DNA of 32,325 nucleotides from Conexibacter sp. (GTDB taxonomy: Bacteria; Actinomycetota; Thermoleophilia; Solirubrobacterales; 70-9). Positions 15,516 to 31,083 of this stretch are shown here, piece after piece. A model generated the notes under the pieces. It was not told where the DNA came from. It saw nothing but the letters and a program-made list of their open reading frames with translations, and made no database searches. A program made the translations under genes and the position numbers. The DNA lies in the NCBI GenBank assembly GCA_018263295.1, contig JADFCZ010000003.1, positions 1-32,325 on the forward strand. Direction: 5' to 3'. Each line of letters opens with the position of its first letter. The stretch's first letter is position 1.

Positions 15516-17507
<1,992 letters not shown>

Positions 17508-17601
17508 CTCAGGTGTCCTTCAGGTGCAATCCGCATGGGAATGGGGTCCGTACCGGCCCCGCCGAATGTTGAGCGTACCAGGGAGGAAACCCCGCTCGAG
17601 C

Positions 17602-17623
17602 CCCTCGCGGGGCGCCGCGAGGG
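17602..17623 (-). terminator. Perfect 9-bp GC hairpin between hpt and ftsH
   Basis: CCCTCGCGG (17602-17610) and CCGCGAGGG (17615-17623) pair perfectly around a 4-nt loop. It begins about 15 nt after the hpt stop. No U-tract follows, though GGGGTTTCC lies shortly downstream. It could partly terminate or stabilise the hpt transcript. The remaining gap to ftsH shows only the ftsH ribosome-binding site. Confidence 0.5.
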
Positions 17624-17637
17624 ATCCTGCCCGCCGC

Positions 17638-18192
17638 CTACCGGTCCTGCTCGAGCGCGGCGACGTAGTCGAGGTTGCGATGACGCTGGGCGTGGTCGAG
17701 CCCGTAGCCGATCGCGAACCGGTCCGGAATCTCGAATCCGACGTAGCGGATCGGGGTCTCGACCCGCCTCCGCTCCGGCTTGGTGAGCAGGGCGCAGACC
17801 TCGATCGAGGCCGGATCGCGGGCCTTGAGGTTGCGCAGCAGGTACTGGAGCGTGAGGCCGGAATCGACGATGTCCTCGACGATCAGGACGTCGCGGCCGT
17901 TGACCGAGGTGTCCAGGTCCTTGAGGATCCGGACGACACCGGAGGAGTCCGTCGCCGACCCGTAGCTGGAAACCGCCATCAGGTCGATCTCGCAGGGCAC
18001 CGTGAGCTCGCGCATCAGGTCGGCCATGAAGATCAGCGCCCCCTTGAGGACGCCGACCATGACGAGATCGCGCTCGGCGTAATCGGCGCTGATCTCGGCG
18101 CCGAGCTCGGCGACGCGGCTGTGCAGCCGGTCCGACTCGATCAGGGTCTCGCCGATCCCGCCGGTTCCGCTGCTCGGAGATGGGTCGCCCAT
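17638..18192 (-). CDS. hpt: Hypoxanthine phosphoribosyltransferase
   Basis: Purine salvage: converts hypoxanthine or guanine plus PRPP to the nucleotide. It shows VMVGVLKGALIFMADLM, the SSYG loop, and the PRPP-binding motif VLIVEDIVDSGLTL (residues 102-115 with Glu106, Asp107, Asp110), then the C-terminal YVGFEIPDRFAIGYGLD. At 184 aa it is normal. ATG 18192 has no ribosome-binding site but TACACT 7 nt upstream, overlapping the very end of tilS, so an internal leaderless promoter is likely. tilS-hpt-ftsH is a widely conserved order. Confidence 0.97.
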   Translation of the reverse strand: MGDPSPSSGTGGIGETLIESDRLHSRVAELGAEISADYAERDLVMVGVLKGALIFMADLMRELTVPCEIDLMAVSSYGSATDSSGVVRILKDLDTSVNGRDVLIVEDIVDSGLTLQYLLRNLKARDPASIEVCALLTKPERRRVETPIRYVGFEIPDRFAIGYGLDHAQRHRNLDYVAALEQDR

Positions 18193-18199
18193 CGCGGCG

Positions 18200-18205
18200 A
18201 GTGTA
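18200..18205 (-). promoter_or_regulatory. -10 box for leaderless hpt
   Basis: TACACT ends 7 nt before ATG 18192, within the 14-bp tilS-hpt gap. It would allow hpt-ftsH to be expressed independently of tilS. Confidence 0.45.
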
Positions 18206-18206
18206 T

Positions 18207-19598
18207 TCAGGGGCGACGGGTCACGGCGCGTGCGGTGATCACCGCGACCTCGGTCGATTCCTCGAGCAGCCGGAACTCGTCGCCGACGGCGACGCCGGCG
18301 ACCCAGGCGACCCGGCCCCCGGCGGTGACCACCGGGATCCGGGACCGGACCGAGCGCGGCACGCCCTGGTCGGTGAAGAGGTCCTGCAGGCTCTTGCTGC
18401 CGCCGAGGCCGAGCGGCCGCATCCGGTCGCCCGATTGCCAGGCCCTGATCTCGACCTCGTCGCCGATCGCGCTCGCGTCGAGCGTCGCCAGCCCCGGGCC
18501 CTCGGGATCGACGGGCCCGTCGCGGAGCTCGGCTCTGAGCTCCCAGTCGCCGAAGCGGGCGACACCGGGGACGCTCATCCGGACCGCGGCGGGAATCGGG
18601 TCGGTGCCGGTGGCGAAGCGGACGGTGCCGGCCTCGCAGAAGGCGCTGAGCCCGCCGCCGACCTCGACCTCGCCGCCCTGGGGGCGCTGGGCGAGCGCGA
18701 GGATCCGCGACGAGTGCCCGCGGTTGAGCGCGACGCTGCGGCCGGCGGCCCGCTCGGCCAGCTCCCGGAGGGCGAGGCGGCGCAGCCCCGGGCCCATCCG
18801 CTCGAGCTCGCTCGCGTCGATCACGGTCGCGCCGCTGCCGGCGCCGGCAGCGGTCAGCGCCTCGGCGACGACGTCGGCGAGGAGCTCGGCCTCCTCGTGG
18901 AGCTCGGCGTGGGTCGCGGCGATGTTGCGTTCGACCTCGGGCCCGATCTCGGCGAGCCGCGGGAGGATCTCGTTGCGGATCCGGTTGCGGACGTAATGGG
19001 GCGTGGCGTTGCTCGGGTCGTCAACGAACGGCAGCTCCGCCTCGATCGCGACCGCCCGCGTCTCCTCGCGCGAGATCGAGTGCAGCGGGCGGACGACGTC
19101 GCCACTGCGGGGCGCGAGGCCGAGCAGCGGCCGGGTCCCGGGCGAGACGGCGAGGCGGTAGAGGAAGGTCTCGGCGACGTCGCTGCGGGTGTGGCCGGTC
19201 GCGACCCACTCGTAGCCGAGCTTGCGCCGGAGCGCCTCGGCCGCCGCGTAGCGGGCGTCGCGGGCCCGCGCCTGGATGTTGCCGCGACCGAGGTCGGGGC
19301 GCTCGACCCGGAGGTCGACGCGGAGCTTCGCGCAGAGCGCGCGGGCAGCGCGCTCGTCCTCGCCGGAGTCGGCGCGGAGGCCGTAGTTGAGGTGAACGGC
19401 GGAGATCGACTCGGGCCCGCAGAGCGCGACGAGCGCCGCCGCGGCACAGGCCGAGTCGGGGCCGCCGGAGACGAGCACGACGCCGGCCGATCGCCGGTCG
19501 ATCAAACCGCCGGCCTCGACCGCGTCGGCCAATGCCTCGATGGCCGGCGAGCTCTGCACGCGGCCAGAATACGGACGCCCACGGCTGGAATCGCTCAT
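18207..19598 (-). CDS. tilS: tRNA(Ile)-lysidine synthase (TilS)
   Basis: Modifies C34 of the AUA-reading tRNA(Ile) to lysidine using ATP and lysine. The N-terminal PP-loop is VLVSGGPDSACA (SGGPDS at 44-49), with HLNYGLRADS, the ATGHTRSDVAET motif and RPLHSISREE. The linker and C-terminal TilS domain are present (PLGLGGSKSLQDLFTDQGVP, RVAWVAGVAVGDEF). It is full length at 463 aa. ATG 19598 overlaps the cyclase stop by 4 nt (ATGA), so it is translationally coupled to a signalling enzyme. The frame is open upstream to 19889 but that part lies inside the cyclase gene. Confidence 0.96.
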   Translation of the reverse strand: MSDSSRGRPYSGRVQSSPAIEALADAVEAGGLIDRRSAGVVLVSGGPDSACAAAALVALCGPESISAVHLNYGLRADSGEDERAARALCAKLRVDLRVERPDLGRGNIQARARDARYAAAEALRRKLGYEWVATGHTRSDVAETFLYRLAVSPGTRPLLGLAPRSGDVVRPLHSISREETRAVAIEAELPFVDDPSNATPHYVRNRIRNEILPRLAEIGPEVERNIAATHAELHEEAELLADVVAEALTAAGAGSGATVIDASELERMGPGLRRLALRELAERAAGRSVALNRGHSSRILALAQRPQGGEVEVGGGLSAFCEAGTVRFATGTDPIPAAVRMSVPGVARFGDWELRAELRDGPVDPEGPGLATLDASAIGDEVEIRAWQSGDRMRPLGLGGSKSLQDLFTDQGVPRSVRSRIPVVTAGGRVAWVAGVAVGDEFRLLEESTEVAVITARAVTRRP

Positions 19599-20800
19599 CT
19601 CATACGGACGTTGGCGGCGGTGGCGACGTAGAGCTCGGTCGGCTCCGGCACCCCCTTGAGAGCCACCTCGCCGATCGGCTCGAGGTCGAGGTAAACGGTC
19701 TCGCCGATCGCGTCGACGACCGGTCTCGTCACGAGCACCTCGCCGGCCAGCGCCCGGGCCACCACCCGATGGGTGAGGTTGACGTCGCTGCCGAAGTAGT
19801 CGCCGTCGCGGTAGACGGCGCCGCCGCAGTGGATCGCCACCCGCGGCCGCGGGCGCTCGTCGAACATGGTCAGGAAGCCGACTGCCCACTCGGTCAGCAT
19901 CCGCGGCTCCGAGGAGACGACCATGACCTCGTCGCCGATCGTCTTGACGATCGTCGCGTCGGCCGGGAGCGTCGCCTCGACGGTCTCGACGAACCGCTCG
20001 ACTAGGTCGAGCGCCTGCTCGTCGCCCTCCTCCTCGGTGAACCGCGTGAAGCCGGTCAGGTCCACGAAGCAGAACGCCATCGAGACCCGGTCGGGATGGC
20101 TGCGGGTCAGCGGCAGGTCGGCCTCCATGTGGCCGACGACGTCCTGCTCCATGTAGAAGCGCAGATAACGCCCGTGGATGTACTCGAGCACGGGCGCGAC
20201 CGTCGGCAGCAGCTCCGACGCCATCCGCTCCATGTCCTCGGCCATCACCAGCGGCGGGACGCCGTCGCGGATCATCGGCTCGTGGACGAAGAGGTGGAAG
20301 AGGCGGACCTCGGCCTCGGCGATCTTGCGGCCGGCCTGGGCGTAGACGCGGACGAGCTGGAGCAGGGCGATCAGCGGGAAGCCGTTGCGGAGCGCACCCG
20401 CCATCCGCTCGAGTGCGGCGACGTCCTCGTCGGTGATCCGGTCGGTCAGCGCCATCGGCGTTCCGAGCAGCGCCATCACCCGCTCGATCAGGTCCTCTTC
20501 GAGCCCGACGATCTCGGCCGCCTCGGCGCGCGAGTGGCTGCGGGTCGGCGCCGGGAGCAGCTCCTCGACCGATCCGAACGCCAGGCGGCCGTCGCGAACC
20601 GCGCCCCGGATCTCGCGAAGCGAGTGGCCCCGCTCCCGCATCCGGTGGATGACCCTGGCCTGCGAGGCGGTGGCTGCGGTCCAGGTCCCGCCCTCGACCT
20701 CGAGGAGCTTCTGCCCGGCCCAGCGCTTCAGGGTCGAAACGGGGACGCCGGAGCGCCGCGACGCCTCGCTGATCGAAATCGGATCATCCGCGGTGGCCAC
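19595..20800 (-). CDS. MerR-like HTH fused to a class III adenylate/guanylate cyclase
   Basis: The N-terminus (about 10-75) is a MerR-type winged HTH: ISISEASRRSGVPVSTLKRWAGQKLL then RVIHRMRERGHSLREIR. A helical middle region (about 90-235) resembles cyclase regulatory domains. The C-terminal cyclase homology domain (about 243-395) has both metal Asp residues (FCFVDLTGFTRFTE and KTIGDEVMVVS), the Lys of KTIGD that favours ATP, and the transition-state Asn and Arg in GSDVNLTHRVVARA. It therefore looks catalytically competent, probably producing cAMP. It is soluble, with no transmembrane segment. GTG 20800 has AAAGG 7 nt upstream; TTG 20806 is too close to that site. The stop overlaps tilS. Confidence 0.9.
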   Translation of the reverse strand: MATADDPISISEASRRSGVPVSTLKRWAGQKLLEVEGGTWTAATASQARVIHRMRERGHSLREIRGAVRDGRLAFGSVEELLPAPTRSHSRAEAAEIVGLEEDLIERVMALLGTPMALTDRITDEDVAALERMAGALRNGFPLIALLQLVRVYAQAGRKIAEAEVRLFHLFVHEPMIRDGVPPLVMAEDMERMASELLPTVAPVLEYIHGRYLRFYMEQDVVGHMEADLPLTRSHPDRVSMAFCFVDLTGFTRFTEEEGDEQALDLVERFVETVEATLPADATIVKTIGDEVMVVSSEPRMLTEWAVGFLTMFDERPRPRVAIHCGGAVYRDGDYFGSDVNLTHRVVARALAGEVLVTRPVVDAIGETVYLDLEPIGEVALKGVPEPTELYVATAANVRMR

Positions 20801-20857
20801 GTCCAAACCTTTACCAATCGGGGCCGGCGGTGGTGAGGACGCCGGACACGTAATCGC

Positions 20858-21817
20858 CTAGATGAACGCGGAGCCGCGCTTGACGAGGTTCTCGTAGAGC
20901 TTCTGCTGGATCGTCTCGCGGACCTGCTCGGAGATCTCGAACACGATCTGGCGGTCGTCGGCGGCCTCGGGTCCGAGACCGCGGAGGTCGATCGGCTCGC
21001 AGAACTCGATCCGCCATTTCGACGGCAGCGGGATCAGGCCGGCGAGGCCGAGCCAGGGAAACGTCGGCGTGATCGGCGCATACGGCGCGCCGATCGCCCG
21101 GGCCAGCAGCGAGCTGTCGGCGATCTTCGGGTAGATCTCCTCGGATCCGACGACGGCGATCGGGACGATCGGCGATCCGGTCCGGAGCGCGACCTCGACG
21201 AAGCCGCCGCGACCGAAGCGCTGCAACCGGTAGCGCTCGGCGAACGGCTTACCCGTGCCCTTGACGCCCTCCGGGAAGACCATCATCAGCCCGTCGTCCT
21301 CGAGGATCCGGGTGGCGTTGTGCGGGCTCGCGGGGACGCCGCCGACCTTGCGCATGAACGCCGACAGGAACGGGAGCGAGAAGGCCCAGTCGAGGACCAT
21401 GAACCGCGGCCACCGGGGCAGCGGGTGCTCCTTCATGACCGCCCCGGTGATCATCGACGCGTCGAACGGGAAGATCGCGCCGGCGTGGTTGGCGACCAGC
21501 ATCGCCCGGCCGTGCGCCGGGACGTTCTCGACCCCGACCGCATCGACCCGCCACCACTGGTCGTAGAGCAGCTCGAAGAACGGGTAGGCGGCCTCGGCGA
21601 ACTCCTCGTCGAAGCCCCACTCGTCCTCGTGGTACTCGCCGCGGAGCCGCCGCGCCATCCGTTCGACCGCGTCGCGGAGCGTCTTCGGGAGGTCGGCCGA
21701 GGCGGCCTCGGCGGCGCTCATCGGGTCGAGGCCGCCGTCGACGGCGGTGCGGACGCTGCGCAGGAAGCGCACGCCGATCTCGGGGATCGATCCGGCCGGG
21801 GCCGCGGCCGCGCTCAT
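20858..21817 (-). CDS. Lysophospholipid acyltransferase family protein (PlsC-like)
   Basis: Likely acylates a glycerol-phosphate or related lipid at the membrane. The acyltransferase block reads MLVANHAGAIFPFDAS (the His of the NHx..D motif, with a longer His-Asp spacing than classical HxxxxD, as in the DGAT-like LPLAT group). GGVPASPHNATRILEDDG follows, then the FPEGVKG motif, then TGSPIVPIAVVGSEE. It is 319 aa. The N-terminal 70 residues are helical and less typical. ATG 21817 overlaps the SDR stop (ATGA). From memory, the SDR/acyltransferase pair matches the mycobacterial Rv0501-Rv0502 arrangement, suggesting a conserved actinobacterial lipid function. The substrate is unknown. Confidence 0.87.
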   Translation of the reverse strand: MSAAAAPAGSIPEIGVRFLRSVRTAVDGGLDPMSAAEAASADLPKTLRDAVERMARRLRGEYHEDEWGFDEEFAEAAYPFFELLYDQWWRVDAVGVENVPAHGRAMLVANHAGAIFPFDASMITGAVMKEHPLPRWPRFMVLDWAFSLPFLSAFMRKVGGVPASPHNATRILEDDGLMMVFPEGVKGTGKPFAERYRLQRFGRGGFVEVALRTGSPIVPIAVVGSEEIYPKIADSSLLARAIGAPYAPITPTFPWLGLAGLIPLPSKWRIEFCEPIDLRGLGPEAADDRQIVFEISEQVRETIQQKLYENLVKRGSAFI

Positions 21818-22836
21818 CGCGCCGACCCCGCGAGGCGGTCGAGGACCGAGCCGACCCCCGGCATCGAGACGAGCCGAAGGCCGCGATCGGCGGCGGCGAA
21901 GTCGCGGATCGCGCCGACGGCGTCGTAGGCCGGCTGGAAGCCGAGCTCGTTCCGCAGGCGCGAGTTGTCGACGCCGCGGCCGTAGCGGAGGAGGCGGACC
22001 GCGTCGCCGTAGAGGCTGCCGGCGCCGAGCCGGTCGCCGAGGCGGGCCATCGCCGGCGCGAACAACGGGTGCGGGATCGGCATCTGCGGGCGGTCGATCA
22101 GCCGCAGCGCCCGCGACAGCGAGATCGACCCGCTCGGCGCGACGTTGACCGCGCCGCGGATCGGGTTCATCGCCGCGGCATGGAGGGCGCCGGTCGCGTC
22201 GTCGGTGTGCAGCAGCTGCAGGCGCGGGTCGAAGCCGAGCTGGGTCGGCACCACCGGCAACGAGAGGTAACGCGCGATCGGCGCGTCGAGGCCGGGGCCG
22301 ATCTCGGGCTGGTAGCGGAGCATGCAGCAGGTGAGGCGGCCGTGGCGACGGGCGAAGTTCGCGAAGTAGCCCTCGAGCTCACCGATGTCGCGCTGGAACC
22401 GGGTCCGGAGCGGGAAGTCGGCGGCCATCGACTCGGTGAAGAAGGACGGGCCGGTCGGCTCGCAACCGTAGATCGCGGCCGACCCGCGGAGGACGACCCG
22501 CTCGAGGGTCGGCGATCGCTCGCAGGCGGCGAGCAGCTGAAGGGTGCCGATGACGTTGATGTCGTGGAGCGCCCGCTGCGGCTTGCCGGGCTCCGGGTAC
22601 CAGAGGATCCCGGCGTGGACGAGCGTGTCCGCCTCGGTCGCGGGAACCAGGCGGGCGAGCAGCGGGCTGCGGATGTCGGCCTCGAGGAACTCGGTCCGCT
22701 CGAGCTGCGCCAGGGGCGGTGTGGTGTCGATCCCGAGGACCTGCTCGACCCCCGGATCGCGCTCCAGGCGCAGTGCCAGCTCGGTTCCCCAGTGGGTTCC
22801 GATGCCGGCGATCAGTATCCGGCGGCCGGATGCCAT
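21814..22836 (-). CDS. Extended SDR / NAD-dependent epimerase-like protein
   Basis: This 340-aa Rossmann protein has the dinucleotide loop ILIAGIGTHWGTELALRL and the acidic strand end VLGIDTT. It also has LEADIRS, ADTLVHAGILWYP, HDINVIGTLQLLAACE and VVLRGSAAIYGCEP, and then a sugar-nucleotide-epimerase-like C-terminus (LLHTDDATGALHAAA, GAVNVAPSG). The usual catalytic YxxxK is not visible. The corresponding stretch reads RFQRDIGELEGYF, so Tyr and Lys appear replaced. That makes binding or an atypical reaction more likely than standard epimerisation. ATG 22836 follows the upstream TAG with no gap, and its end overlaps the acyltransferase start. Confidence 0.85.
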   Translation of the reverse strand: MASGRRILIAGIGTHWGTELALRLERDPGVEQVLGIDTTPPLAQLERTEFLEADIRSPLLARLVPATEADTLVHAGILWYPEPGKPQRALHDINVIGTLQLLAACERSPTLERVVLRGSAAIYGCEPTGPSFFTESMAADFPLRTRFQRDIGELEGYFANFARRHGRLTCCMLRYQPEIGPGLDAPIARYLSLPVVPTQLGFDPRLQLLHTDDATGALHAAAMNPIRGAVNVAPSGSISLSRALRLIDRPQMPIPHPLFAPAMARLGDRLGAGSLYGDAVRLLRYGRGVDNSRLRNELGFQPAYDAVGAIRDFAAADRGLRLVSMPGVGSVLDRLAGSAR

Positions 22837-23232
22837 CTAGTCCCGGGGATCCCCTTGTTCATCGGGTTCCAGCGGGCTAGTCTCAACCTCTACTGAAGCC
22901 TTAGGTTCGCCCTTGTCGGGCGCCCCGGCACCTTCGAGCGCGGCGAGCCGGCGCTCGATCCCGTCGAGGCGCTCACCGATGCGCCGGATCGCCTCGCCGT
23001 CGGCAGCGCGGAGCTCGCCGATCGCGTCGGCGAGGCGCGAAGTCGCCGATTCGCCGCGGCGCGCGACCTCCTCGCGGGCGCTGCGGCCGCGGCGGACGAC
23101 GTCGTCGAGGACGCCCTGCGCCCGGTCGCGGGTTCCGGTGGCCGACTCGGCGGTCGCCGCAAGCGTCCGCTCGACGGCGCTGCGGAGGGCGTCGGTGCCG
23201 GATCCGGCGCTGTCCTTGTCGGCTTCGCTCAT
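22837..23232 (-). CDS. Small coiled-coil (phasin-like) protein
   Basis: 131 aa, highly charged, no hydrophobic segment. Heptad-like helices run from about 15 to 100 (RRGRSAREEVARRGE, AIGELRAADGEAIRRIGERL, IERRLAALEGA), followed by an acidic tail. This layout resembles phasin or apolipoprotein-like coiled coils, but no family is certain. It heads the leftward series: its TAG is immediately followed by the SDR ATG. A TAAGCT hexamer 6 nt before ATG 23232 suggests a leaderless start. It resembles, in style only, the second coiled-coil gene at 24125. Confidence 0.7.
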   Translation of the reverse strand: MSEADKDSAGSGTDALRSAVERTLAATAESATGTRDRAQGVLDDVVRRGRSAREEVARRGESATSRLADAIGELRAADGEAIRRIGERLDGIERRLAALEGAGAPDKGEPKASVEVETSPLEPDEQGDPRD

Positions 23233-23238
23233 CCCCCA

Positions 23239-23244
23239 AGCTTA
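23239..23244 (-). promoter_or_regulatory. -10-like box heading the leftward series
   Basis: TAAGCT on the minus strand ends 6 nt before ATG 23232. The spacer is TGGGGG, which could weakly mimic a ribosome-binding site but is too close to the start. Confidence 0.4.
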
Positions 23245-23376
23245 GGGGCCGCCGGACGCCGCCGCGGGCCCGCGGGGCCGGTGGCGGCGACACCGTCTCC
23301 CAGGGGGTCGCCGGGGCACCATCCGGCAGCCCAGCGCAGTCGAGCGCGGCGGAGCCGCGCGAGTCGCGCAGTCATC

Positions 23377-23382
23377 TATCGT
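23377..23382 (+). promoter_or_regulatory. -10-like box for phosphorylase-like gene
   Basis: TATCGT ends 10 nt before GTG 23393, which would place the transcription start at or next to the start codon. The 23233-23392 gap is otherwise GC-rich with no further signal I can support. Confidence 0.35.
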
Positions 23383-23392
23383 CGCCCCGGCC

Positions 23393-24112
23393 GTGCCCCT
23401 CCACCTCCGCCCGAGCGCCCCGACCGCAGCCGACGCGCTGATCTGCGGCGACCCGGCCCGGGCGCTGACCATCGCCCAGCACGTGATGGTCCAACCGCGC
23501 ATGAGCAACCACAACCGGGGACTCTGGGGCTACCACGGCGCGACTCCGTCGGGCCTGGAGCTGACGGTCCAGGCGACCGGGATCGGCGCGCCGAGCGCTG
23601 TGGCCGTCCTCGCCGAGGCGGCCGAGCTCGGAATCCGGCGGATCGTCCGGATCGGGACCTGCGCCGGCGTCGGGCCCGTCCCCCACTCCCTCGGCGCGAC
23701 CGTCGTCGTCGCGACGGCGGCGGCGGGCGACGGCGCCAGCGCCGCTCTGGGCTCGGGGCCGGAGGCGATCCCCGACGGCGAGCTGACGTCGGCGCTCGCG
23801 GCGCTCGCCGGCGCCCCGGAGGCGTCCGTCTCCAGCGCCGACCTCCTGCCCGGAGCCGGCGATCGGCCGGCGGCCGGGCTCCACGATCTCCAGACCGCCG
23901 CCGTTCTGACCCTGGCCCGCCGGCTCGGGCTCGCGGCGGCCGCAGCACTCGTCGTCCGCAGCCTCGACGGCCGCCGGCTCGAGGACGATCCGCTCGAGGC
24001 GGCGCTCCTCCGGCTCGCCGACGCCGGGGTCGCGGCGCTCGAGAGCTCCGGAGGGACCGGGTCGACGCCGGACCGCCCCGTCCCGAAAGTCTCAACCTCG
24101 ACTAGAGACTGA
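23393..24112 (+). CDS. Nucleoside phosphorylase (PNP/UDP) family protein, active site altered
   Basis: The N-terminal half is a clear PNP_UDP_1 domain: ALICGDPARALTIAQ, HNRGLWGYHG, LTVQATGIGAPSAVAVLAEAA and RIVRIGTCAGVG, retaining the phosphate-binding Arg positions of the DeoD-type enzymes. The C-terminal half departs from the family. The ribose-binding Met-Glu segment reads LHDLQTAAVL (Glu replaced by Gln), and the catalytic Asp motif after the next strand (VSD in DeoD) reads VVRSLDG. At 239 aa it is near full length. It may bind a nucleoside or base without normal phosphorolysis, or use a different substrate. GTG 23393. It is convergent with the coiled-coil gene (12-bp gap). Confidence 0.82.
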   Translation: MPLHLRPSAPTAADALICGDPARALTIAQHVMVQPRMSNHNRGLWGYHGATPSGLELTVQATGIGAPSAVAVLAEAAELGIRRIVRIGTCAGVGPVPHSLGATVVVATAAAGDGASAALGSGPEAIPDGELTSALAALAGAPEASVSSADLLPGAGDRPAAGLHDLQTAAVLTLARRLGLAAAAALVVRSLDGRRLEDDPLEAALLRLADAGVAALESSGGTGSTPDRPVPKVSTSTRD

Positions 24113-24124
24113 GACCGGGGGTCT

Positions 24125-24406
24125 TCAGTCCGTCGCCGGACGGCGGCGGAGGCGATCGACCTCGTCCTCGAGCGCCTCGACCCGGTCGGAAAGGGCCCGC
24201 ACCCGACGGACGAGCCGCTCGACGTCGCCGGCGCTGGACACGTCGATCGCGTTCAGAGCCGCACGCTGAGCTCCGGCGGCGCGCTCGCCGGCGCCGAGCG
24301 CCTTCCCCAGCGCCTGGCTGAAAAGTGGGTTCTCGAGCAGGCTTTGAGCGAGCTCGCCGATGACCTCTTCGCCCCGCGCCCTCAATCCCGCTTGTTCTTC
24401 AGCCAC
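24125..24406 (-). CDS. Small coiled-coil protein
   Basis: 93 aa from GTG 24406, which has GGGAG 5 nt upstream; TTG 24439 would add 11 residues without a better site. The body is helical: EEVIGELAQSLLENPLFSQALGKAL, a middle with VERLVRRVRALSDRVEALEDEVDRLRRR forming a leucine-heptad coiled coil, and a basic end. No transmembrane segment. It looks like a phasin-type or oligomerisation protein; the family is not identified. It is divergent from the wall hydrolase gene across a 285-bp structured gap. Confidence 0.7.
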   Translation of the reverse strand: MAEEQAGLRARGEEVIGELAQSLLENPLFSQALGKALGAGERAAGAQRAALNAIDVSSAGDVERLVRRVRALSDRVEALEDEVDRLRRRPATD

Positions 24407-24453
24407 GTTCGCTCCCGAAGTTTGGTGCCCACCGTTCAAGGAACGACGGTAAC

Positions 24454-24474
24454 TGATCGATCACATGTCTGTGA
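24454..24474. promoter_or_regulatory. Overlapping palindromes, possible operator
   Basis: TGATCGATCA (24454-24463) is a perfect 10-bp palindrome. It overlaps TCACA-N4-TGTGA (24461-24474), a second perfect inverted repeat. Together they sit 48-68 bp upstream of the coiled-coil start and about 220 bp upstream of the hydrolase. The second has the half-sites of a CRP site in the reverse arrangement, so it is not a standard CRP motif. Confidence 0.4.
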
Positions 24475-24548
24475 GCAACCTTGATGTACCTTCCGCGGCA
24501 GGCCGTGAGCGGGGATCCGGCCCGAGCTATCGGATGGGTATGGAGACA

Positions 24549-24609
24549 CAGCGGAACAGCCGATTGGGATGCCCGATTGCGGGTATCGGTTCGTCGTTGC
24601 ATTCCGCTG
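24549..24609 (+). promoter_or_regulatory. Nested stem structure upstream of wall hydrolase
   Basis: CAGCGGAA (24549-24556) pairs perfectly with TTCCGCTG (24602-24609). Inside, CCGAT (24560-24564) pairs with ATCGG (24585-24589), and inside that CCCG-ATTG-CGGG (24572-24583) closes a tetraloop. Three nested perfect stems in 61 nt are unlikely by chance and suggest either a structured RNA leader or a complex protein site. Strand and transcript status are unknown. Confidence 0.4.
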
Positions 24610-24625
24610 CCCGGACGGATAGTTT
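24597..24625 (+). promoter_or_regulatory. Possible promoter for wall hydrolase gene
   Basis: TTGCAT (24597-24602), 17 nt, TAGTTT (24620-24625): both halves match consensus at 3 of 6 positions, with ideal spacing. If used, the leader would be about 60 nt and the nested stem would lie upstream in the promoter rather than in the RNA. Confidence 0.3.
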
Positions 24626-24691
24626 TCCTCGCGCTCTTGGAGAGGTCGGCGTCCAGCAGGCAGGGCTGAGCGAGTCTCGCGACAAGGGTGC

Positions 24692-27334
24692 ATGGGAATG
24701 AGGAACCGACTGGTCATAACGCTGGTGCTGGGCACGCTTCTCGCTGTGCTCGCTGCGGGTGCCGTAGGCGCCCAGTCGTCCGGTGTCTCCGTCGACCTCC
24801 CCGGCGGCGGCTCGCTCGACCCCGGCGCAGCCCTTCCCGCCTGCTCGAACCTTCGCGACGACGACGGCGACGGCGCGGTCGACCTCGGCGACGCCGGGTG
24901 CTCCAACCCTCTAGACGGGGATGAGACTAATTCGACGACGCCGCCGACGACGACCACGCCGCCGACGACGACCACGCCGCCGACCACCACCACGCCGCCG
25001 ACGACGACGACCGACCCGACCACCTCGACGAGCGACGACACTCCCCCGCCGCGGGACGATCCCGACGACCTCCCCGGCAAGGATCCGTTCGGGGACGGCA
25101 AGGACGGCGGTCGCGACTTCACCGTCAAGAACGAGGACGAGGGCGACGGCTCCAAGGGCGGCTCCGACGAGTCCGACGATCCGAACGAGATCCCGACCCC
25201 GGAGATCCGGCGCCCCGACGGCACGCCGACGAACTCGAACCCCACCATCACGATCGGCACCAGCGGCGCCGCTCCGATCGGGGTCCCCAACTTCGTCATC
25301 GAGCAGTTCTCGATCCCGCCCTTCCTGCTCCCGATCTACCAGGCCTGCGGAACCCAGTACGGGGTGCCATGGGAGGTGCTGGCCTCGATCAACCGGATCG
25401 AGACCGCGTTCGGCACGAACCTCAACGTCTCCACCGCCGGCGCGCTGGGCTGGATGCAGTTCATGCCCCCGACCTGGGAGATGTACGGAGTCGATGCCAA
25501 CAACGACGGCCGTAAGGACCCCTACAACCCGGTCGACGCGATCTGCGCCGCCGCCAGGTACCTGAAGGCCGCCGGAGCCGAGGAGGACCTCTACCAGGCG
25601 ATCTTCGCCTACAACCACGCCGACTGGTACGTCGACGAAGTCCTCCTCTACGCGAAGCAGTACGGGAACCTCCCGAGCGGCCTCGTCGACTCGCTCACCG
25701 GGCTGACCGAAGGCGCGCACTTCCCGGTCGCCGCGAAGTCGCGCTACGCCGACGACATCTCCGAGCGCGCCGCGATCAAGCGCGCGGCGCCGAGCCCGGG
25801 CTCCACCGGCAACGTCGCCGACGTCGTCAGCGACTCGCCGACCCGGCGCGGGATCGACATCTACTCGAAGGACGGCGCACCCGTCGTCGCCGCCAACGAC
25901 GGCGTCATCACGAAGATCGGCCAGAGCAAGCAGCTCGGCCGCTTCATCGTCCTCCGCGACGCCTACGGCAACGAGTACACCTACGCCGGCCTCGGCAAGA
26001 TCGCCGAGGCGATCCCGGTGCCGAAGCAGAAGAGCCTGACGGCGAAGGACTTCAACCTGATCACGCCGGGCGACGGCGACAAGAAGCCGAGCGTTTCGGC
26101 CAGCAAGACGACCAAGGCGCAGACCGTCCACAACGAGGCCGAAACGAGCGCCGGCTCCAAGGACGGCTCCAAGGGCTCCAAGGGCGGCGCCTCCGAGAAG
26201 TCCTCGAGCCCGAGCAAGGGCGGGCCCGCACCGGCGCCGGCGCCGCTCACCAGCGGCCTCGGCGACTGGCGCGCTCCGGACGCCGGCCCGACCAACACCG
26301 AGGACAGCCGCGAGCGCCTCTACGCGCTGCCGAACCGGAAGGACAACGGCGAGAACGGCAAGGGCGCCGAGAAGGTCGGCGGCAGCATCGGGGCCCAGGT
26401 CGACGACCTCCTCGGCAAGGGCATGCCCGGCTACGAGACCTTCAAGTCCTACTTCTCCGGCGTCCTTCGCTTCGACTCGAAGACGATGGACACGGCGCCG
26501 CTCCGCAAGGGCTCCCGGGTCGTCGGCGGCACGATCATCGGCGAGGTCGGCCAGACCGACCCCGAGATCGCACCCCACCTCCACTTCGAGATCACCCCGG
26601 CCGGGCGCGGCGCCCACACGATCGATCCGAAGCCGATCCTCGACGGCTGGAAGCTGCTCGAGGCGACCGCGATCTACCGCGCCGCCGGCAAGAACCCGTT
26701 CGACGACCGGGCGACCGTCGGCCAGGTCCTGCTCGCGTCGAAGTCGCAGCTCCAGCGCCAGGTCCTCGCCGACCCGAACGTCGAGATCTACTCCTGCGGC
26801 CGCGAGGACATCGCCACCGGGCAGATCGACCGCCGCGTCCTGGCGATGCTCGAGTACCTCGTCGCCCGCGGCTACCGCCTCACCCTCACCTCGCTCAAGT
26901 GCGGCCACAGCATCATGACCGCGTCGGGCAACGTCAGCGCCCACTCGACCGGCGACGCCGTCGACATCGCGATGGTCAACGGGATCCCGATTCTCGGCAA
27001 CCAGGGCCAGGGCTCGATCACGGAGGCCGTGATCAACGACCTCTTGAAGCTGCAGGGCCCGATGGAGCCGGCCCAGATCATCTCGCTGATGGAGATGGGC
27101 GGCCCGACGTTCGCGATGGGCGACCACGCCGATCACATCCACGTCGGCTACACGCCCGACGGCACCGACAGCGGCGGCCAGCCGCTGACCGGGATGCTCA
27201 AGCCCGATCAGTGGGACAAGCTCCTCGATCGGATCTCCGAGCTCGACCAGCCGACCGTACCGGTCAAGCCGTCGAAGTTCTCGCTGCCCGCCAAGAAGGG
27301 CGACAAGGCGAGCAACGCGCACATCGGCGAGTAA
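24692..27334 (+). CDS. Secreted multidomain peptidoglycan hydrolase (transglycosylase + M23-like + M15-like)
   Basis: 880 aa. A signal peptide (about 1-28) is followed by an acidic DDDGDGAVDLGDAGC Ca-binding-like motif with two Cys (51-70), a Thr/Pro repeat linker (about 82-108) and a charged linker. A lytic transglycosylase (about 205-330) follows: GVPWEVLASINRIETAFG with catalytic Glu237, GALGWMQFMPPTW, and the DANNDGRKDPYNP loop. An M23-like domain is split: its first half is at about 385-436 and its second half at about 602-645 (APHLHFEI), with a 165-residue Gly/Ser/Lys/Pro-rich insertion. Its first zinc ligand position is Arg385 instead of His (RRGID). The C-terminal domain (about 690-825) has the M15 motifs SAHSTGDAVD (His751, Asp758) and DHADHIHVGY. 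Start ATG 24692, or 24698, which is better spaced from AAGGG. Confidence 0.9.
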   Translation: MGMRNRLVITLVLGTLLAVLAAGAVGAQSSGVSVDLPGGGSLDPGAALPACSNLRDDDGDGAVDLGDAGCSNPLDGDETNSTTPPTTTTPPTTTTPPTTTTPPTTTTDPTTSTSDDTPPPRDDPDDLPGKDPFGDGKDGGRDFTVKNEDEGDGSKGGSDESDDPNEIPTPEIRRPDGTPTNSNPTITIGTSGAAPIGVPNFVIEQFSIPPFLLPIYQACGTQYGVPWEVLASINRIETAFGTNLNVSTAGALGWMQFMPPTWEMYGVDANNDGRKDPYNPVDAICAAARYLKAAGAEEDLYQAIFAYNHADWYVDEVLLYAKQYGNLPSGLVDSLTGLTEGAHFPVAAKSRYADDISERAAIKRAAPSPGSTGNVADVVSDSPTRRGIDIYSKDGAPVVAANDGVITKIGQSKQLGRFIVLRDAYGNEYTYAGLGKIAEAIPVPKQKSLTAKDFNLITPGDGDKKPSVSASKTTKAQTVHNEAETSAGSKDGSKGSKGGASEKSSSPSKGGPAPAPAPLTSGLGDWRAPDAGPTNTEDSRERLYALPNRKDNGENGKGAEKVGGSIGAQVDDLLGKGMPGYETFKSYFSGVLRFDSKTMDTAPLRKGSRVVGGTIIGEVGQTDPEIAPHLHFEITPAGRGAHTIDPKPILDGWKLLEATAIYRAAGKNPFDDRATVGQVLLASKSQLQRQVLADPNVEIYSCGREDIATGQIDRRVLAMLEYLVARGYRLTLTSLKCGHSIMTASGNVSAHSTGDAVDIAMVNGIPILGNQGQGSITEAVINDLLKLQGPMEPAQIISLMEMGGPTFAMGDHADHIHVGYTPDGTDSGGQPLTGMLKPDQWDKLLDRISELDQPTVPVKPSKFSLPAKKGDKASNAHIGE

Positions 27335-27350
27335 CGACAGGGGCGCCGCC

Positions 27351-28184
27351 CTGGCCGCTCCACCGCTACTCCCGTTCGCACAGCTCGACCTGCCCGGACG
27401 GCTCGGCCCCGGCGACGGCCGCTACCTGATCCGTCCCGAGGCCCGGCCCGACGCCGAGCCTGACGTGCTCGTGCTGACCACCCTCGGGGCCACGCGCGCC
27501 GGTCCCCGGCTGCGCCGCGCCAAGGCGCAGCCGCTCGCCGAGACGCCCGGCGCCTCGCCGCTGCCGCTGACCCGGGCGACGCTGATCCGGCCGCGGCCGT
27601 TCGGCGACGAGGCCGCCGCGGAGCGGTGGCTGCGCGAGGTCTGCGCCGACCGCGACCTCTGGAGCTCCCTCGCGCGCGAGGCGGCCGCCGAGCTCAACCG
27701 GCTCCTGCACGCCCACCGCACCGCCGCCGGCGACCCCTATGTGGCCGATGTCGACGCTGCCCGAGCGGTCGCGGTCCGCTTCGGCTACGGGACCGGCGAC
27801 GAGGTCGCCGACGGGCGCTGGCGGGCCGCCAACGAGCTCGCGGAGCCCGAACGGCGCAAGCTCGTTCAGCGCGACTACGAGGCGTTGCGCCCCCAGGAGC
27901 GGGTCGCCGCGGTCCTCGCCGGGCGCGAGGTGGTCGGCCCGCACGAGGACCTGATCGTCCGCGCCCGCGGAGATTTCGACGCCGGCCGCCTCGACGCCGC
28001 CGCGCTGGGACTCGACGCGGCGCTGCGCGCGATGGCCGCGGGCGGCGCGAGCCTCCCGGCCGCGGCCGACGCCGCGGCGGCGGCCCAGCGGGCCGTCGTC
28101 GGTGGCGACGCTCCCGACCGGGCGGCGCTCGAGACGGCTCTGCGCGAGGCGGAGATGGCGATCCGCAAGCGCGCGATCGGGTAG
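27351..28184 (+). CDS. Uncharacterised protein, probable CTG start
   Basis: No family recognised. The frame is coding-like well upstream of the first GTG (27465). AGGGG (27339-27343) lies 7 nt before CTG 27351, giving an N-terminus AAPPLLPFAQLDLPGRLGPGDGRYLIRP and 277 aa in all. Visible features are a strand-rich beginning (DVLVLTTLGATRA), a middle with AAAERWLREV, AAAELNRLLHAHRTA and YVADVDAARAVAVRFGYGTGDEVADGRW, and a helical Ala-rich C-terminus. There is no signal peptide or transmembrane segment. It starts 17 bp after the wall hydrolase, so it is probably co-transcribed with it, and converges on the sirtuin gene 5 bp away. Confidence 0.75.
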   Translation: MAAPPLLPFAQLDLPGRLGPGDGRYLIRPEARPDAEPDVLVLTTLGATRAGPRLRRAKAQPLAETPGASPLPLTRATLIRPRPFGDEAAAERWLREVCADRDLWSSLAREAAAELNRLLHAHRTAAGDPYVADVDAARAVAVRFGYGTGDEVADGRWRAANELAEPERRKLVQRDYEALRPQERVAAVLAGREVVGPHEDLIVRARGDFDAGRLDAAALGLDAALRAMAAGGASLPAAADAAAAAQRAVVGGDAPDRAALETALREAEMAIRKRAIG

Positions 28185-28189
28185 CCGCG

Positions 28190-28993
28190 CTAGATCCCGA
28201 GCGCCGCCAGCACGGCCGGCAGCTCGTCGGCGACGTCCCCGTCGAGCTTGAGCGCGGCGTCGCGGTCGTACGGCGTCGGGCCCTTCGTCACCAGCACGAC
28301 GCGGCCGCCGTGGGCGAGCGTCAGCTCCGGCAGGCCGGCCGCCGGGAACACCTCGAGCGAGGAGCCGACGCAGATCATCAGGTCCGCTGCCGAGGCGAGG
28401 GCCCGGGCGCGCTCGATCGCCTCGACCGGCAGCATCTCCCCGAAGAGGACGACGTCGGGCTTGACGAGGCCGGGGCAGACGTCGCAGACGGCGATCCCGC
28501 GGCCGTCGAACAGCGCATCGACCTCCTCGAGCTCGTAGGTGCGGCCACAGGTGACACAGCTCGCCGTCGCGATCGATCCGTGGACCTCGATCAGGTCGCG
28601 GGTGCCGGCGGCGCGATGGAGGCGGTCGATGTTCTGGGTGATGACGACGTCGAGGCGGCCGGCGTCCTCTAGCCGGGCGAGCGCCTCATGGGCGGCGTTC
28701 GGCCGCTTGTCGCCGAGCATGCTGAACCGCGGGCGATAGAAGTCCCAGAACCGCTTCGTGTCGTGGCGGAAGGCGTCGATCGAGGCGACCTCGAAGGGAT
28801 CGACGTCGGCCCAGATGCCCTCCCCGGGGGTGCGGAAGTCGGGGATACCAGACGGCACGCTGATCCCGGCGCCGGTCAACGCGACCGTGCCGGCGGACTC
28901 GCGGATCAGCTCGGCGAGCGACTCGGCGCCCGTCCGTTGCGACGGGCGCCGAGTGCCGTCCGATCCGGTTCTTTCGGCTACTTGCCGCTCCAC
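28190..28993 (-). CDS. cobB: Sir2-family NAD-dependent protein deacylase
   Basis: Removes acyl groups from lysines using NAD. The Rossmann motifs are TGAGISVPSGIPDFR (GAGIS at 41-45), TQNID (119-123) and GSSLEVFPAA. The catalytic His138 is in EVHGS. The zinc site has four Cys (CVTC 146-149, CDVC 170-173). KPDVVLFGE follows. I do not see the Tyr/Arg pair typical of desuccinylases in a position I can assign safely, so the acyl preference is open. The start is GTG 28993, overlapping the upstream fused beta-oxidation gene by 16 bp, so the two are co-transcribed and probably coupled. The N-terminal 20 residues are not conserved-looking, so a later start is possible. Confidence 0.95.
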   Translation of the reverse strand: MERQVAERTGSDGTRRPSQRTGAESLAELIRESAGTVALTGAGISVPSGIPDFRTPGEGIWADVDPFEVASIDAFRHDTKRFWDFYRPRFSMLGDKRPNAAHEALARLEDAGRLDVVITQNIDRLHRAAGTRDLIEVHGSIATASCVTCGRTYELEEVDALFDGRGIAVCDVCPGLVKPDVVLFGEMLPVEAIERARALASAADLMICVGSSLEVFPAAGLPELTLAHGGRVVLVTKGPTPYDRDAALKLDGDVADELPAVLAALGI

Positions 28994-30981
28994 TTGGGCG
29001 TGCGCTTACCGAGGAAGGCGCTGATGCCCTCCTTGGCGTCCTCGCTGAAGAAGGCCGCAGCGAAGCCGGCCTTTTCGGCCTCGATGCCCTCGTCGAGGTC
29101 GCCCTTGTGGGAGACCTGCTTGATCTGCTCGACCGCGATCGGCGCCTGGCCCGCGAGCTTGCGGGCGAAGGCGACGGCTGTGTCGAACATCTCGTGGTCG
29201 GGCGCCAGGTAGTTGACGAGACCGACCTCGTAGGCCTCGCCGGCGGTGATCGCGTCGCCGATCAGGTTCATCTCGAGGGCCTTCTGGGGTCCCACCAGGC
29301 GCGGCAGCCGCTGGGTGCCGCCGAACCCGGGGATGATCCCGAGCTTCACCTCGGGCTGGCCGAACACGGCCGACTCCGCGGCGATCCGCAGGTCGCAGGA
29401 CATCGCGAGCTCGCAGCCGCCGCCGAACGCGAGCGAGTTGACCGCGGCGATCGTGGCGATGCCCTCGGTGCCGAACTCGCGGAGCAGCGCGTGGCCGTCC
29501 TCGATCAGTTCCTTGCCGCCCGCCTCGTCCATCTTCGTGAACGCCTTGATGTCGGCGCCGGCCGAATAGACCAGCGGAATCGAGGAGGCGACGACCATCG
29601 CGTGGATCGAGTCGTCGGCCTTGAGCTTCTCCCAGACCGTTCGCAGGTCGACGATGACCTGGGGGCTGATCGAGTTCATCGGCAGGTTGGCCAGCCACGC
29701 GATCGCGACGCCGCCCTCCCGGGTCTCGAGCTTGATCGTCTCGGTCTGATCGCCCTCGTCCGGCTGCGGGTAGGCGTAGAAGCCCTGGCCGGTCGCGAGC
29801 CCGAGGCGGCCCTGGGCGACGAGGCGCCTGAGGATCACCGGCACCGTGAACCGGTCCGGGTGCTTCTCGGCGAGGTTCTCGACCTTCTCGAGAACCGTGT
29901 CGAGCCCCTCGACGTCGGCCTTCCAGAACGGCGGCAACAGGCCGCGCCGCGGGTCGAGCCCGGCGCCGGCCATCATCCCGACGTCGATCTCGCGGACGCT
30001 GCAGACCCCCTCCTCGAGGATCAGACAGGCTTCGACGAGAGCCTTGAGCGAGAACATCTCGACGAGCTCCTCGACGTTCGGGTCGGCGTCGCCCTCGAGG
30101 TTCGGCTCGCCGTCCTTGTAGGCGCCCTCGCCTCCGGTCTTGACGCCGAGCTTGCCCTCGTCGACCAGCTTCTGCATGCCCGGGTGGACGTAGAAGCGGT
30201 CGCCGTAGGAATCCCGGAGGTGCTCGGCGACGTGGAGGACCGTGTCGAGCCCGAGGAAGTCGGTGAGGATGAACGGCCCCATCGGCGCCGCGTTGGCACC
30301 GGCGATGCCCTCGTCGATCTTCTTGATCGACAGGCCCTTCTCGTTCTGCTCGCGCCAGACCTCGGCGACCGAGGAGTTGAGGATCCGGTTGACGACGAAG
30401 CCGGGGACCTCGTCGCAGACGATCGGCTGCTTCTTGATCGCCTGGGCGAAGTTGAACGCCGTGGCGACGGTCTCGTCGGAGGAGTCCTCGCCGCGGACGA
30501 TCTCGAGCAGCGGCATGATCGACGCCGGGTAGAAGAAGTGGAAGCCGACGACCTTCTCGGGTCGCAGCGTCGCCTCGCCCATCTCGGTGATCGACAGCGA
30601 CGAGGTGTTGCTGCTGATCACGGCGTGGCCCGGGGTGACGGCATCGAGCTCGGCGAACACGGCCTGCTTGATCTCCATCCGCTCCGGCGCGGCCTCGATG
30701 ACGAAGTCGACGTCGCCGAACGAGGAGTAGTCGGTGGTGCCCTCGATCCGGCCCATGACCTCCTCGAGGCGCGCGTCGGCCTGCTCCTGGGTCAGCTTCT
30801 CCTTCGAGACGAGCTTGTCGAGCTGGCCCTTGGTGACCTCGCGGGCCTTGTCGAGGCCGTGGTCGACGAACTTCTGGTCGATGTCCTTGAGCACGACGTC
30901 GATGTCGGCGACCGCGATCGCCTGGGCGATCTCGCCTCCCATCGTGCCCGCACCGACGACTGCAGCCTTGAAGACGAACAT
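28978..30981 (-). CDS. Fused 3-hydroxyacyl-CoA dehydrogenase / enoyl-CoA hydratase
   Basis: Bifunctional beta-oxidation enzyme in the order dehydrogenase then hydratase, the reverse of FadB/FadJ. It has NAD-binding GAGTMGGEIA (10-19), catalytic His148 in VVGFHFFYPA, and the VPGFVVNRI motif. Two HAD C-terminal domains follow (about 190-285 and 305-400, each ending in a GKLG or GRLG-type motif). The crotonase domain (about 420-615) has YSAGADIKAF, FGGGCELAMSCD (Glu524) and FGQPEVKLGIIPGFGGTQRLPR (Glu544); both catalytic Glu residues are retained. It is 667 aa. ATG 30981 has AGGAG 5 nt upstream. This domain order is known from archaeal crotonyl-CoA hydratase/3-hydroxybutyryl-CoA dehydrogenases. 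No thiolase lies nearby. Confidence 0.94.
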   Translation of the reverse strand: MFVFKAAVVGAGTMGGEIAQAIAVADIDVVLKDIDQKFVDHGLDKAREVTKGQLDKLVSKEKLTQEQADARLEEVMGRIEGTTDYSSFGDVDFVIEAAPERMEIKQAVFAELDAVTPGHAVISSNTSSLSITEMGEATLRPEKVVGFHFFYPASIMPLLEIVRGEDSSDETVATAFNFAQAIKKQPIVCDEVPGFVVNRILNSSVAEVWREQNEKGLSIKKIDEGIAGANAAPMGPFILTDFLGLDTVLHVAEHLRDSYGDRFYVHPGMQKLVDEGKLGVKTGGEGAYKDGEPNLEGDADPNVEELVEMFSLKALVEACLILEEGVCSVREIDVGMMAGAGLDPRRGLLPPFWKADVEGLDTVLEKVENLAEKHPDRFTVPVILRRLVAQGRLGLATGQGFYAYPQPDEGDQTETIKLETREGGVAIAWLANLPMNSISPQVIVDLRTVWEKLKADDSIHAMVVASSIPLVYSAGADIKAFTKMDEAGGKELIEDGHALLREFGTEGIATIAAVNSLAFGGGCELAMSCDLRIAAESAVFGQPEVKLGIIPGFGGTQRLPRLVGPQKALEMNLIGDAITAGEAYEVGLVNYLAPDHEMFDTAVAFARKLAGQAPIAVEQIKQVSHKGDLDEGIEAEKAGFAAAFFSEDAKEGISAFLGKRTPKWSGK

Positions 30982-31083
30982 TCCGCTCCTAACGTGGGTT
31001 CTGATCTGGGTACGTGAAGTGTGCGTGGCGCGCGGCGAGACGAGCCGTCGCGCGGCCGGGGGGCGACCCCGGGGTCCGGAAGG

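What the first reader, a model, noticed from the sequence alone, without database searches (positions are those of the whole stretch)
24692..27334. One secreted protein with transglycosylase, split M23 lacking a zinc His, and M15-like peptidase modules
Combining glycan-strand cleavage with two peptidase folds in 880 aa is unusual. The M23 domain has Arg at the first zinc-ligand position (RRGID) but keeps HLH, and is interrupted by a 165-residue low-complexity insertion, so it may be a binding or activator module as in EnvC/NlpD-type proteins. The M15 motifs are intact.
Basis: partly seen in the sequence, partly recalled or inferred. Interest (0 to 1): 0.65.

Follow-up and report, generated by a model that had tools for sequence, protein, structure and literature searches.

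The report
Cell-wall hydrolase with conserved dead peptidase
This gene encodes a secreted bacterial wall-cutting protein that carries a sugar-strand cutter and a zinc peptidase on either side of a third, peptidase-shaped module that has lost its zinc site in every relative examined, which suggests that nature fused two cutters to their own regulator or scaffold.

Summary
The 880-aa protein has a Slt35/GH23-like lytic transglycosylase module, a LytM/M23 fold split by a ~160-aa insert, and a divergent clan-MD (M15/MepA/Hedgehog-like) zinc peptidase module. In an alignment of 91 proteins (89 readable at all M23 positions), the transglycosylase Glu is invariant (89/89). The peptidase quartet H-D-D-H is kept in 81 of 88. 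In contrast, none of the 89 has His at the first M23 zinc-ligand position (Arg in 75), and none keeps all three zinc ligands; 63 keep none. The split is present in every member. The family is a near-core gene of the order (strong match in 58 of 61 genomes). A tree indicates the dead M23 entered an older, widespread actinobacterial SLT-M15 protein.

The likely mechanism is a two-enzyme wall hydrolase with a non-catalytic LytM module as built-in docking or regulatory part. The closest functional parallel is Caulobacter DipM, whose inactive LytM domain binds transglycosylases, an amidase and a carboxypeptidase. An EnvC/NlpD-type amidase-activator role is less likely: Amidase_3 was not found in this genome nor in most of 61 genomes of the order. 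The regulatory role itself is inferred, not shown.

The parts
24692..27334 (+). Whole gene, 880 aa: signal peptide - acidic disulfide motif - Thr/Pro linker - SLT - M23 half 1 - insert - M23 half 2 - clan MD peptidase - conserved C-terminal tail
   Evidence: homologues of the same architecture
24692..24772 (+). Signal-peptide-like N terminus (residues 1-27, MGMRNRLVITLVLGTLLAVLAAGAVGA)
   Evidence: read from the sequence; no predictor available
24839..24904 (+). Acidic double-disulfide repeat-like motif (residues 50-71, ACSNLRDDDGDGAVDLGDAGC region)
   Evidence: NF033662 E=1.7e-4, below its cut-off
24929..25036 (+). Thr/Pro-rich linker (residues 80-115)
   Evidence: sequence; Mucin low-complexity match
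25283..25726 (+). Lytic transglycosylase module (residues 198-345)
   Evidence: Pfam SLT_2 / SLT; Slt35 by sequence and fold; mean pairwise identity 76% in the family
25400..25402 (+). Catalytic Glu237 (aligned with the ET of the Slt35 GVETRWG motif)
   Evidence: invariant in 89 of 89 homologues with the position
25817..26011 (+). LytM/M23 half 1 (residues 376-440), with R385 in place of the first zinc His, D389, and G433 in place of the second catalytic His
   Evidence: model pLDDT about 93-96
26012..26491 (+). Insert between the M23 halves (residues 441-600), mostly low complexity, with conserved [KR]ERLFAxPxR at 540-549
   Evidence: present in all homologues, 31-195 aa by alignment; low pLDDT in most of it
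26492..26647 (+). LytM/M23 half 2 (residues 601-652), H629-L-H631
   Evidence: H631 kept in only 17 of 89
26714..27157 (+). Clan-MD (M15/M74/Hedgehog-like) peptidase module (residues 675-822); H751, D758, D814, H817
   Evidence: HDDH in 81 of 88
27179..27307 (+). Conserved C-terminal tail (residues 830-872, L-K-P-x-Q-W ... I-x-N/Q-P-x-V ... P-S-K/R-Y/F-A/S), seen in the proteins that carry M23
   Evidence: compare sequences

Best explanation
A secreted peptidoglycan hydrolase of Solirubrobacterales with two working catalytic modules and one non-catalytic module. Step 1 (inferred from the conserved catalytic Glu and fold): the SLT module cleaves glycan strands. Step 2 (inferred from the conserved zinc-site motif and fold): the C-terminal clan-MD module cleaves a stem-peptide bond; which bond is unknown. 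Step 3 (sequence evidence strong): the LytM domain between them cannot form the M23 zinc site and is a pseudo-peptidase in the whole family. Step 4 (inferred by analogy with DipM): this domain serves as a built-in docking or regulatory part. It would bind peptidoglycan stems or partner proteins, or hold or activate the two attached enzymes, so that strand and peptide cleavage are coupled in one place. The insert would be a flexible loop of the split LytM fold.
For: In 91 aligned proteins Glu237 is 89/89 and the H-D-D-H set of the peptidase is 81/88. At the M23 site none of 89 keeps His385 (75 Arg), none keeps all three zinc ligands and 63 keep none. The best-scoring M23 of the same genome keeps HNGVD and HLHFE, so the method reads real sites. 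The M23 fold is still predicted: both halves align together to lysostaphin and LytM (TM 0.64-0.68 by target length), and half 1 matches EnvC LytM, with core pLDDT above 90. Purifying selection on the M23 halves in the closest pairs (dN/dS 0.12-0.38) versus 0.46-1.16 in the low-complexity insert. The gene has a strong match (E below 1e-80) in 58 of 61 genomes, with sir2 and fadB homologues nearby in 32-33 of 50 loci. Precedent: the inactive LytM domain of DipM binds SdpA, SdpB, AmiC and CrbA and stimulates SdpA and AmiC (PMC10336132).
Against: No activity or binding was tested. Two SLT-M15 relatives nested in the tree lack M23 (L169, L170), so the module is dispensable in some paralogues. In one lineage pair (L034/L035) M23 half 1 has dN/dS 1.12, although dS there is only 0.085. 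Three homologues lack part of the peptidase zinc set as well (GDNQ), so the two activities are not strictly coupled. The M15-like fold matches are weak (best E 7e-3, TM about 0.4).
Confidence: 0.6

Rival explanations
1. EnvC/NlpD-type: the degenerate LytM domain activates a separate Amidase_3 amidase at division.
For: Degenerate LytM domains of EnvC/NlpD do this (PMC8360153 and PMC9662197 abstracts and passages); fold matches include EnvC LytM and its AmiB complex.
Against: No Amidase_3 in this genome (about 90% complete) and none in 51 of the 61 genomes searched in the order, while 8 of 14 control genomes ring. One Amidase_2 protein exists, but EnvC/NlpD are not known to act on that family (own knowledge).
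Confidence: 0.1
2. The dead M23 is a substrate-binding module only (a cell-wall-binding domain), raising local concentration on peptidoglycan stems without regulating anything.
For: The LytM fold is retained; R385 (75/89) and Y431 (91/91) are conserved; modular wall hydrolases commonly carry binding domains (PMC9662197).
Against: Former active-site positions other than R385 vary freely (389, 433, 631), which is not what a fixed substrate groove would show.
Confidence: 0.25
3. The M23 module is an autoinhibitory lid or spacer that blocks the SLT or peptidase cleft until cleaved or displaced.
For: The module lies between the two enzymes and is split by a long flexible insert.
Against: No direct evidence; the insert has no conserved protease site that I could recognise.
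Confidence: 0.1
4. M23 still works with altered metal ligands.
For: H629 is kept in 66 of 89 and D389/H631 in some, including this protein.
Against: The first His ligand is absent in all 89 and 63 of 89 keep none of the three ligands; positions 389 and 631 are highly variable.
Confidence: 0.04
5. Dead passenger: the M23 domain is decaying and has no function.
For: M23 half 1 has lower family identity (51%) than SLT (76%); dN/dS 1.12 in one pair; absent in two paralogues nested in the tree.
Against: Found across the order with a mostly conserved Arg and a well-predicted fold; dN/dS 0.12-0.38 in the closest pairs.
Confidence: 0.1

Closest known systems
DipM of Caulobacter crescentus (PMC10336132)
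   Same: Catalytically inactive LytM domain working with a soluble lytic transglycosylase and other wall hydrolases.
   Different: DipM is a separate protein with LysM domains that binds its enzymes in trans; here the enzymes are fused to the LytM domain, and no binding has been shown.
EnvC / NlpD / ActS amidase activators
   Same: Degenerate LytM fold; fold search returns EnvC LytM.
   Different: They have no fused hydrolases and act on Amidase_3 amidases, a family not found in this genome.
Actinobacterial SLT-M15 two-module proteins (for example L153-L156; M15-like part annotated 'extensin family protein' on Rhodococcus plasmids)
   Same: Same SLT and clan-MD peptidase modules in the same order; likely represent the ancestral arrangement.
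   Different: No M23 module, shorter (300-500 aa).
Slt35/MltB and GH23 lytic transglycosylases
   Same: SLT module, catalytic Glu, QFMP and AYN-type motifs.
   Different: Only one of three modules here.
M15 / M74 (MepA) / Hedgehog-fold zinc peptidases, clan MD
   Same: Fold and H-x6-D ... D-x-x-H pattern.
   Different: Below every Pfam cut-off; looks like an undescribed or poorly modelled subfamily.

Membership tests
Lytic transglycosylase (SLT / Slt35-like) | Fold and catalytic Glu | tested here: met
   Pfam SLT_2 61.7 bits against a cut-off of 24.3; Slt35 fold match; Glu237 89/89
Lytic transglycosylase (SLT / Slt35-like) | Produces 1,6-anhydro muropeptides | not testable with these tools
   needs enzyme assay
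Peptidase family M23 (active) | LytM beta fold | tested here: met
Peptidase family M23 (active) | Zinc ligands HxxxD and HxH | tested here: not met
   R385 here; His385 in 0 of 89, no homologue with all three ligands
Degenerate LytM regulators (EnvC/NlpD/DipM type) | LytM fold without intact catalytic site | tested here: met
Degenerate LytM regulators (EnvC/NlpD/DipM type) | Binds and stimulates a wall hydrolase | not testable with these tools
   no binding data
Degenerate LytM regulators, EnvC/NlpD subtype | Cognate Amidase_3 present in the genome | tested here: not met
   no PF01520 match in G000 (about 90% complete), 10 of 61 genomes in the order have one
Clan MD peptidases (M15/M74/Hedgehog fold) | Fold | tested here: met
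   the top 38 PDB matches are of this fold, but E only 7e-3 to 0.36
Clan MD peptidases (M15/M74/Hedgehog fold) | Zinc triad H, D, H plus acidic catalytic residue | tested here: met
   H751, D758, H817 and D814 in 81 of 88
Pfam M15 families (VanY, M15_3, M15_4, Extensin-like_C) | Score above curated cut-off | tested here: not met
   best 16.3 bits against 25.4

The most novel reading that the evidence does not exclude
An order of bacteria that mostly lacks Amidase_3 amidases has replaced the usual trans pairing of LytM activator and wall hydrolase by one polypeptide in which a pseudo-LytM domain, inserted once into an older transglycosylase-peptidase protein, regulates both attached enzymes in cis.
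Probability: 0.3. Interest if true: 0.7.

Novelty: new variant of a known kind. Interest (0 to 1): 0.5.

Why it matters
How cells keep wall-cutting enzymes under control is an open question, and degenerate LytM proteins are among the few known regulators. A family in which evolution fused the pseudo-enzyme to a transglycosylase and a peptidase, and kept it fused across an order, gives a one-protein system in which the effect of a dead LytM domain on attached enzymes can be measured directly. It also points to a divergent clan-MD peptidase group in Actinomycetota that current family models miss.

Tried and rejected
Phage origin: no match of the peptidase module in 50,697 phage records and no meaningful PHROG; rejected. 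Stop codons inside the module in sister families: in the two loci inspected (L149, L150) the protein ends at ...HVGF/HVGY, directly at the end of the match, so this is an end effect and not readthrough. The long antisense ORF 24911-27322 (-) is taken as an artefact of high GC; it does not pass the codon-position filter used. Profile search of the peptidase module against PDB sequences found only a chance EF-hand match. A first attempt at the relatives search failed and was repeated.

Full report
Observation. The ORF at 24692-27334 (+) encodes 880 aa. Pfam assigns SLT_2/SLT around residues 218-314 and Peptidase_M23 in two stretches; in DNA the M23 halves lie at 25844-26005 and 26486-26605. The M23 site reads R385-R-G-I-D389, then Y431-A-G433-L, then H629-L-H631. 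By the family description in PMC9662197 the ligands are HxxxD and the second His of HxH, with a further catalytic His upstream of HxH. So this protein has lost the first ligand and, in addition, the upstream His (now G433).

Family survey. Searches of the genome's relatives and of GTDB contigs found the same architecture throughout Solirubrobacterales: 58 of 61 genomes searched have a strong match (E below 1e-80). I aligned the window protein with 90 homologues. Glu237 of the transglycosylase is invariant (89/89). The peptidase quartet H751-D758-D814-H817 is H-D-D-H in 81 of 88. In the M23 module, of 89 readable sequences none has His at 385 (75 Arg, 4 Pro, 3 Gln, 3 Ser, 2 Ala, 1 Ile, 1 Glu); 20 keep D389, 26 have His at 433, 66 keep H629 and 17 keep H631; 63 keep none of the three zinc ligands and none keeps all three. 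The best M23 protein elsewhere in the same genome reads HNGVD ... HLHFE, an internal control. The split is also family-wide: by alignment the stretch between the halves is 31-195 aa, with a conserved [KR]ERLFAxPxR motif inside, so it is an ancestral insertion and not junk in one gene.

Structure. An AlphaFold2 model of residues 186-830 (84 sequences, mean pLDDT 75.6) has confident SLT, M23 and peptidase cores and a disordered insert. Foldseek against the PDB returns LytM/M23 structures that span both halves across the insert (lysostaphin 4qpb and LytM 2b13, TM 0.65-0.68 by target length), EnvC LytM with and without AmiB, and Slt35. So the split halves are predicted to form one LytM fold. The separate model of the C-terminal module (pLDDT 86.9) matches Hedgehog N-domains, MepA, the M15 DD-peptidase 1lbu and VldE. 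All are the same clan MD fold, though with modest scores, and sequence models stay below cut-off. In Rhodococcus plasmids the related domain is annotated 'extensin family protein'.

Evolution. The peptidase module is found across Thermoleophilia and wider Actinomycetota. Outside the order most proteins carry SLT directly followed by the peptidase, or the peptidase alone; some Solirubrobacterales paralogues are SLT-SLT-M15. A tree of the module needs two changes of the label 'has M23' (shuffled mean 20), consistent with one gain near the base of Solirubrobacterales and loss in the lineage of paralogues L169 and L170. One trimodular protein lies outside the class (L151, family f11), by transfer or misbinning. 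Loci share neighbours related to the window's own: a Sir2-like gene and fadB downstream in 32-33 of 50 loci, and hpt, tilS or ftsH upstream in a smaller share. Names of neighbours are my reading of their sequences. This looks like an ordinary chromosomal locus, not a mobile element.

Constraint. Between the window and its closest relative L038, dN/dS is 0.03 for SLT, 0.12 and 0.22 for the M23 halves, 0.18 for the peptidase and 0.46 for the insert. The M23 halves are constrained, though less than SLT, and one pair (L034/L035) gives 1.12 for half 1 with very low dS.

Mechanism. Shown by sequence: two modules with intact catalytic residues and one with a family-wide broken site but retained fold. 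Inferred: the SLT cuts glycan strands, the clan-MD module cuts stem peptides (bond unknown), and the LytM module docks, scaffolds or regulates. [quoted passage not shown] DipM does in trans what this protein may do in cis. The EnvC/NlpD reading is weakened because Amidase_3, their target family, was not found in this genome (about 90% complete) and in 51 of the 61 genomes searched in the order, with the search validated on controls; one Amidase_2 protein is present.

Novelty. Each module is of a known kind. The literature searches I ran showed no paper on this architecture or on wall hydrolases of Thermoleophilia, within the open-access library only. I rate it a new variant of a known kind, interest 0.5.

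Noticed in passing
L173:2-1879, L182, L183, L171: Paralogues with two transglycosylase-like modules in tandem followed by the clan-MD peptidase module.
   Followed up: partly
L172:2-2695 (and homologues L087, L093, L106 with G-D-N-Q): Trimodular proteins in which the C-terminal peptidase has also lost zinc-site residues, leaving only the transglycosylase intact.
   Followed up: partly
26657-27181; L152-L168: A divergent clan-MD peptidase group, mostly fused to SLT, in several actinobacterial families and below Pfam cut-offs (nearest Extensin-like_C).
   Followed up: partly
24839-24904: Acidic double-disulfide repeat-like motif (DDDGDGxxDxxDxGC) behind the signal peptide, perhaps calcium-binding.
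   Followed up: no
27179-27307: Conserved C-terminal tail (QW..L..RI..I.QP.V...PS.F) that by eye goes with the M23 module: absent in the M23-less paralogue L169.
   Followed up: partly
15516-31000: Partly conserved order of ftsH, hpt, tilS, this gene, a Sir2-like gene and fadB homologues across Solirubrobacterales loci.
   Followed up: partly
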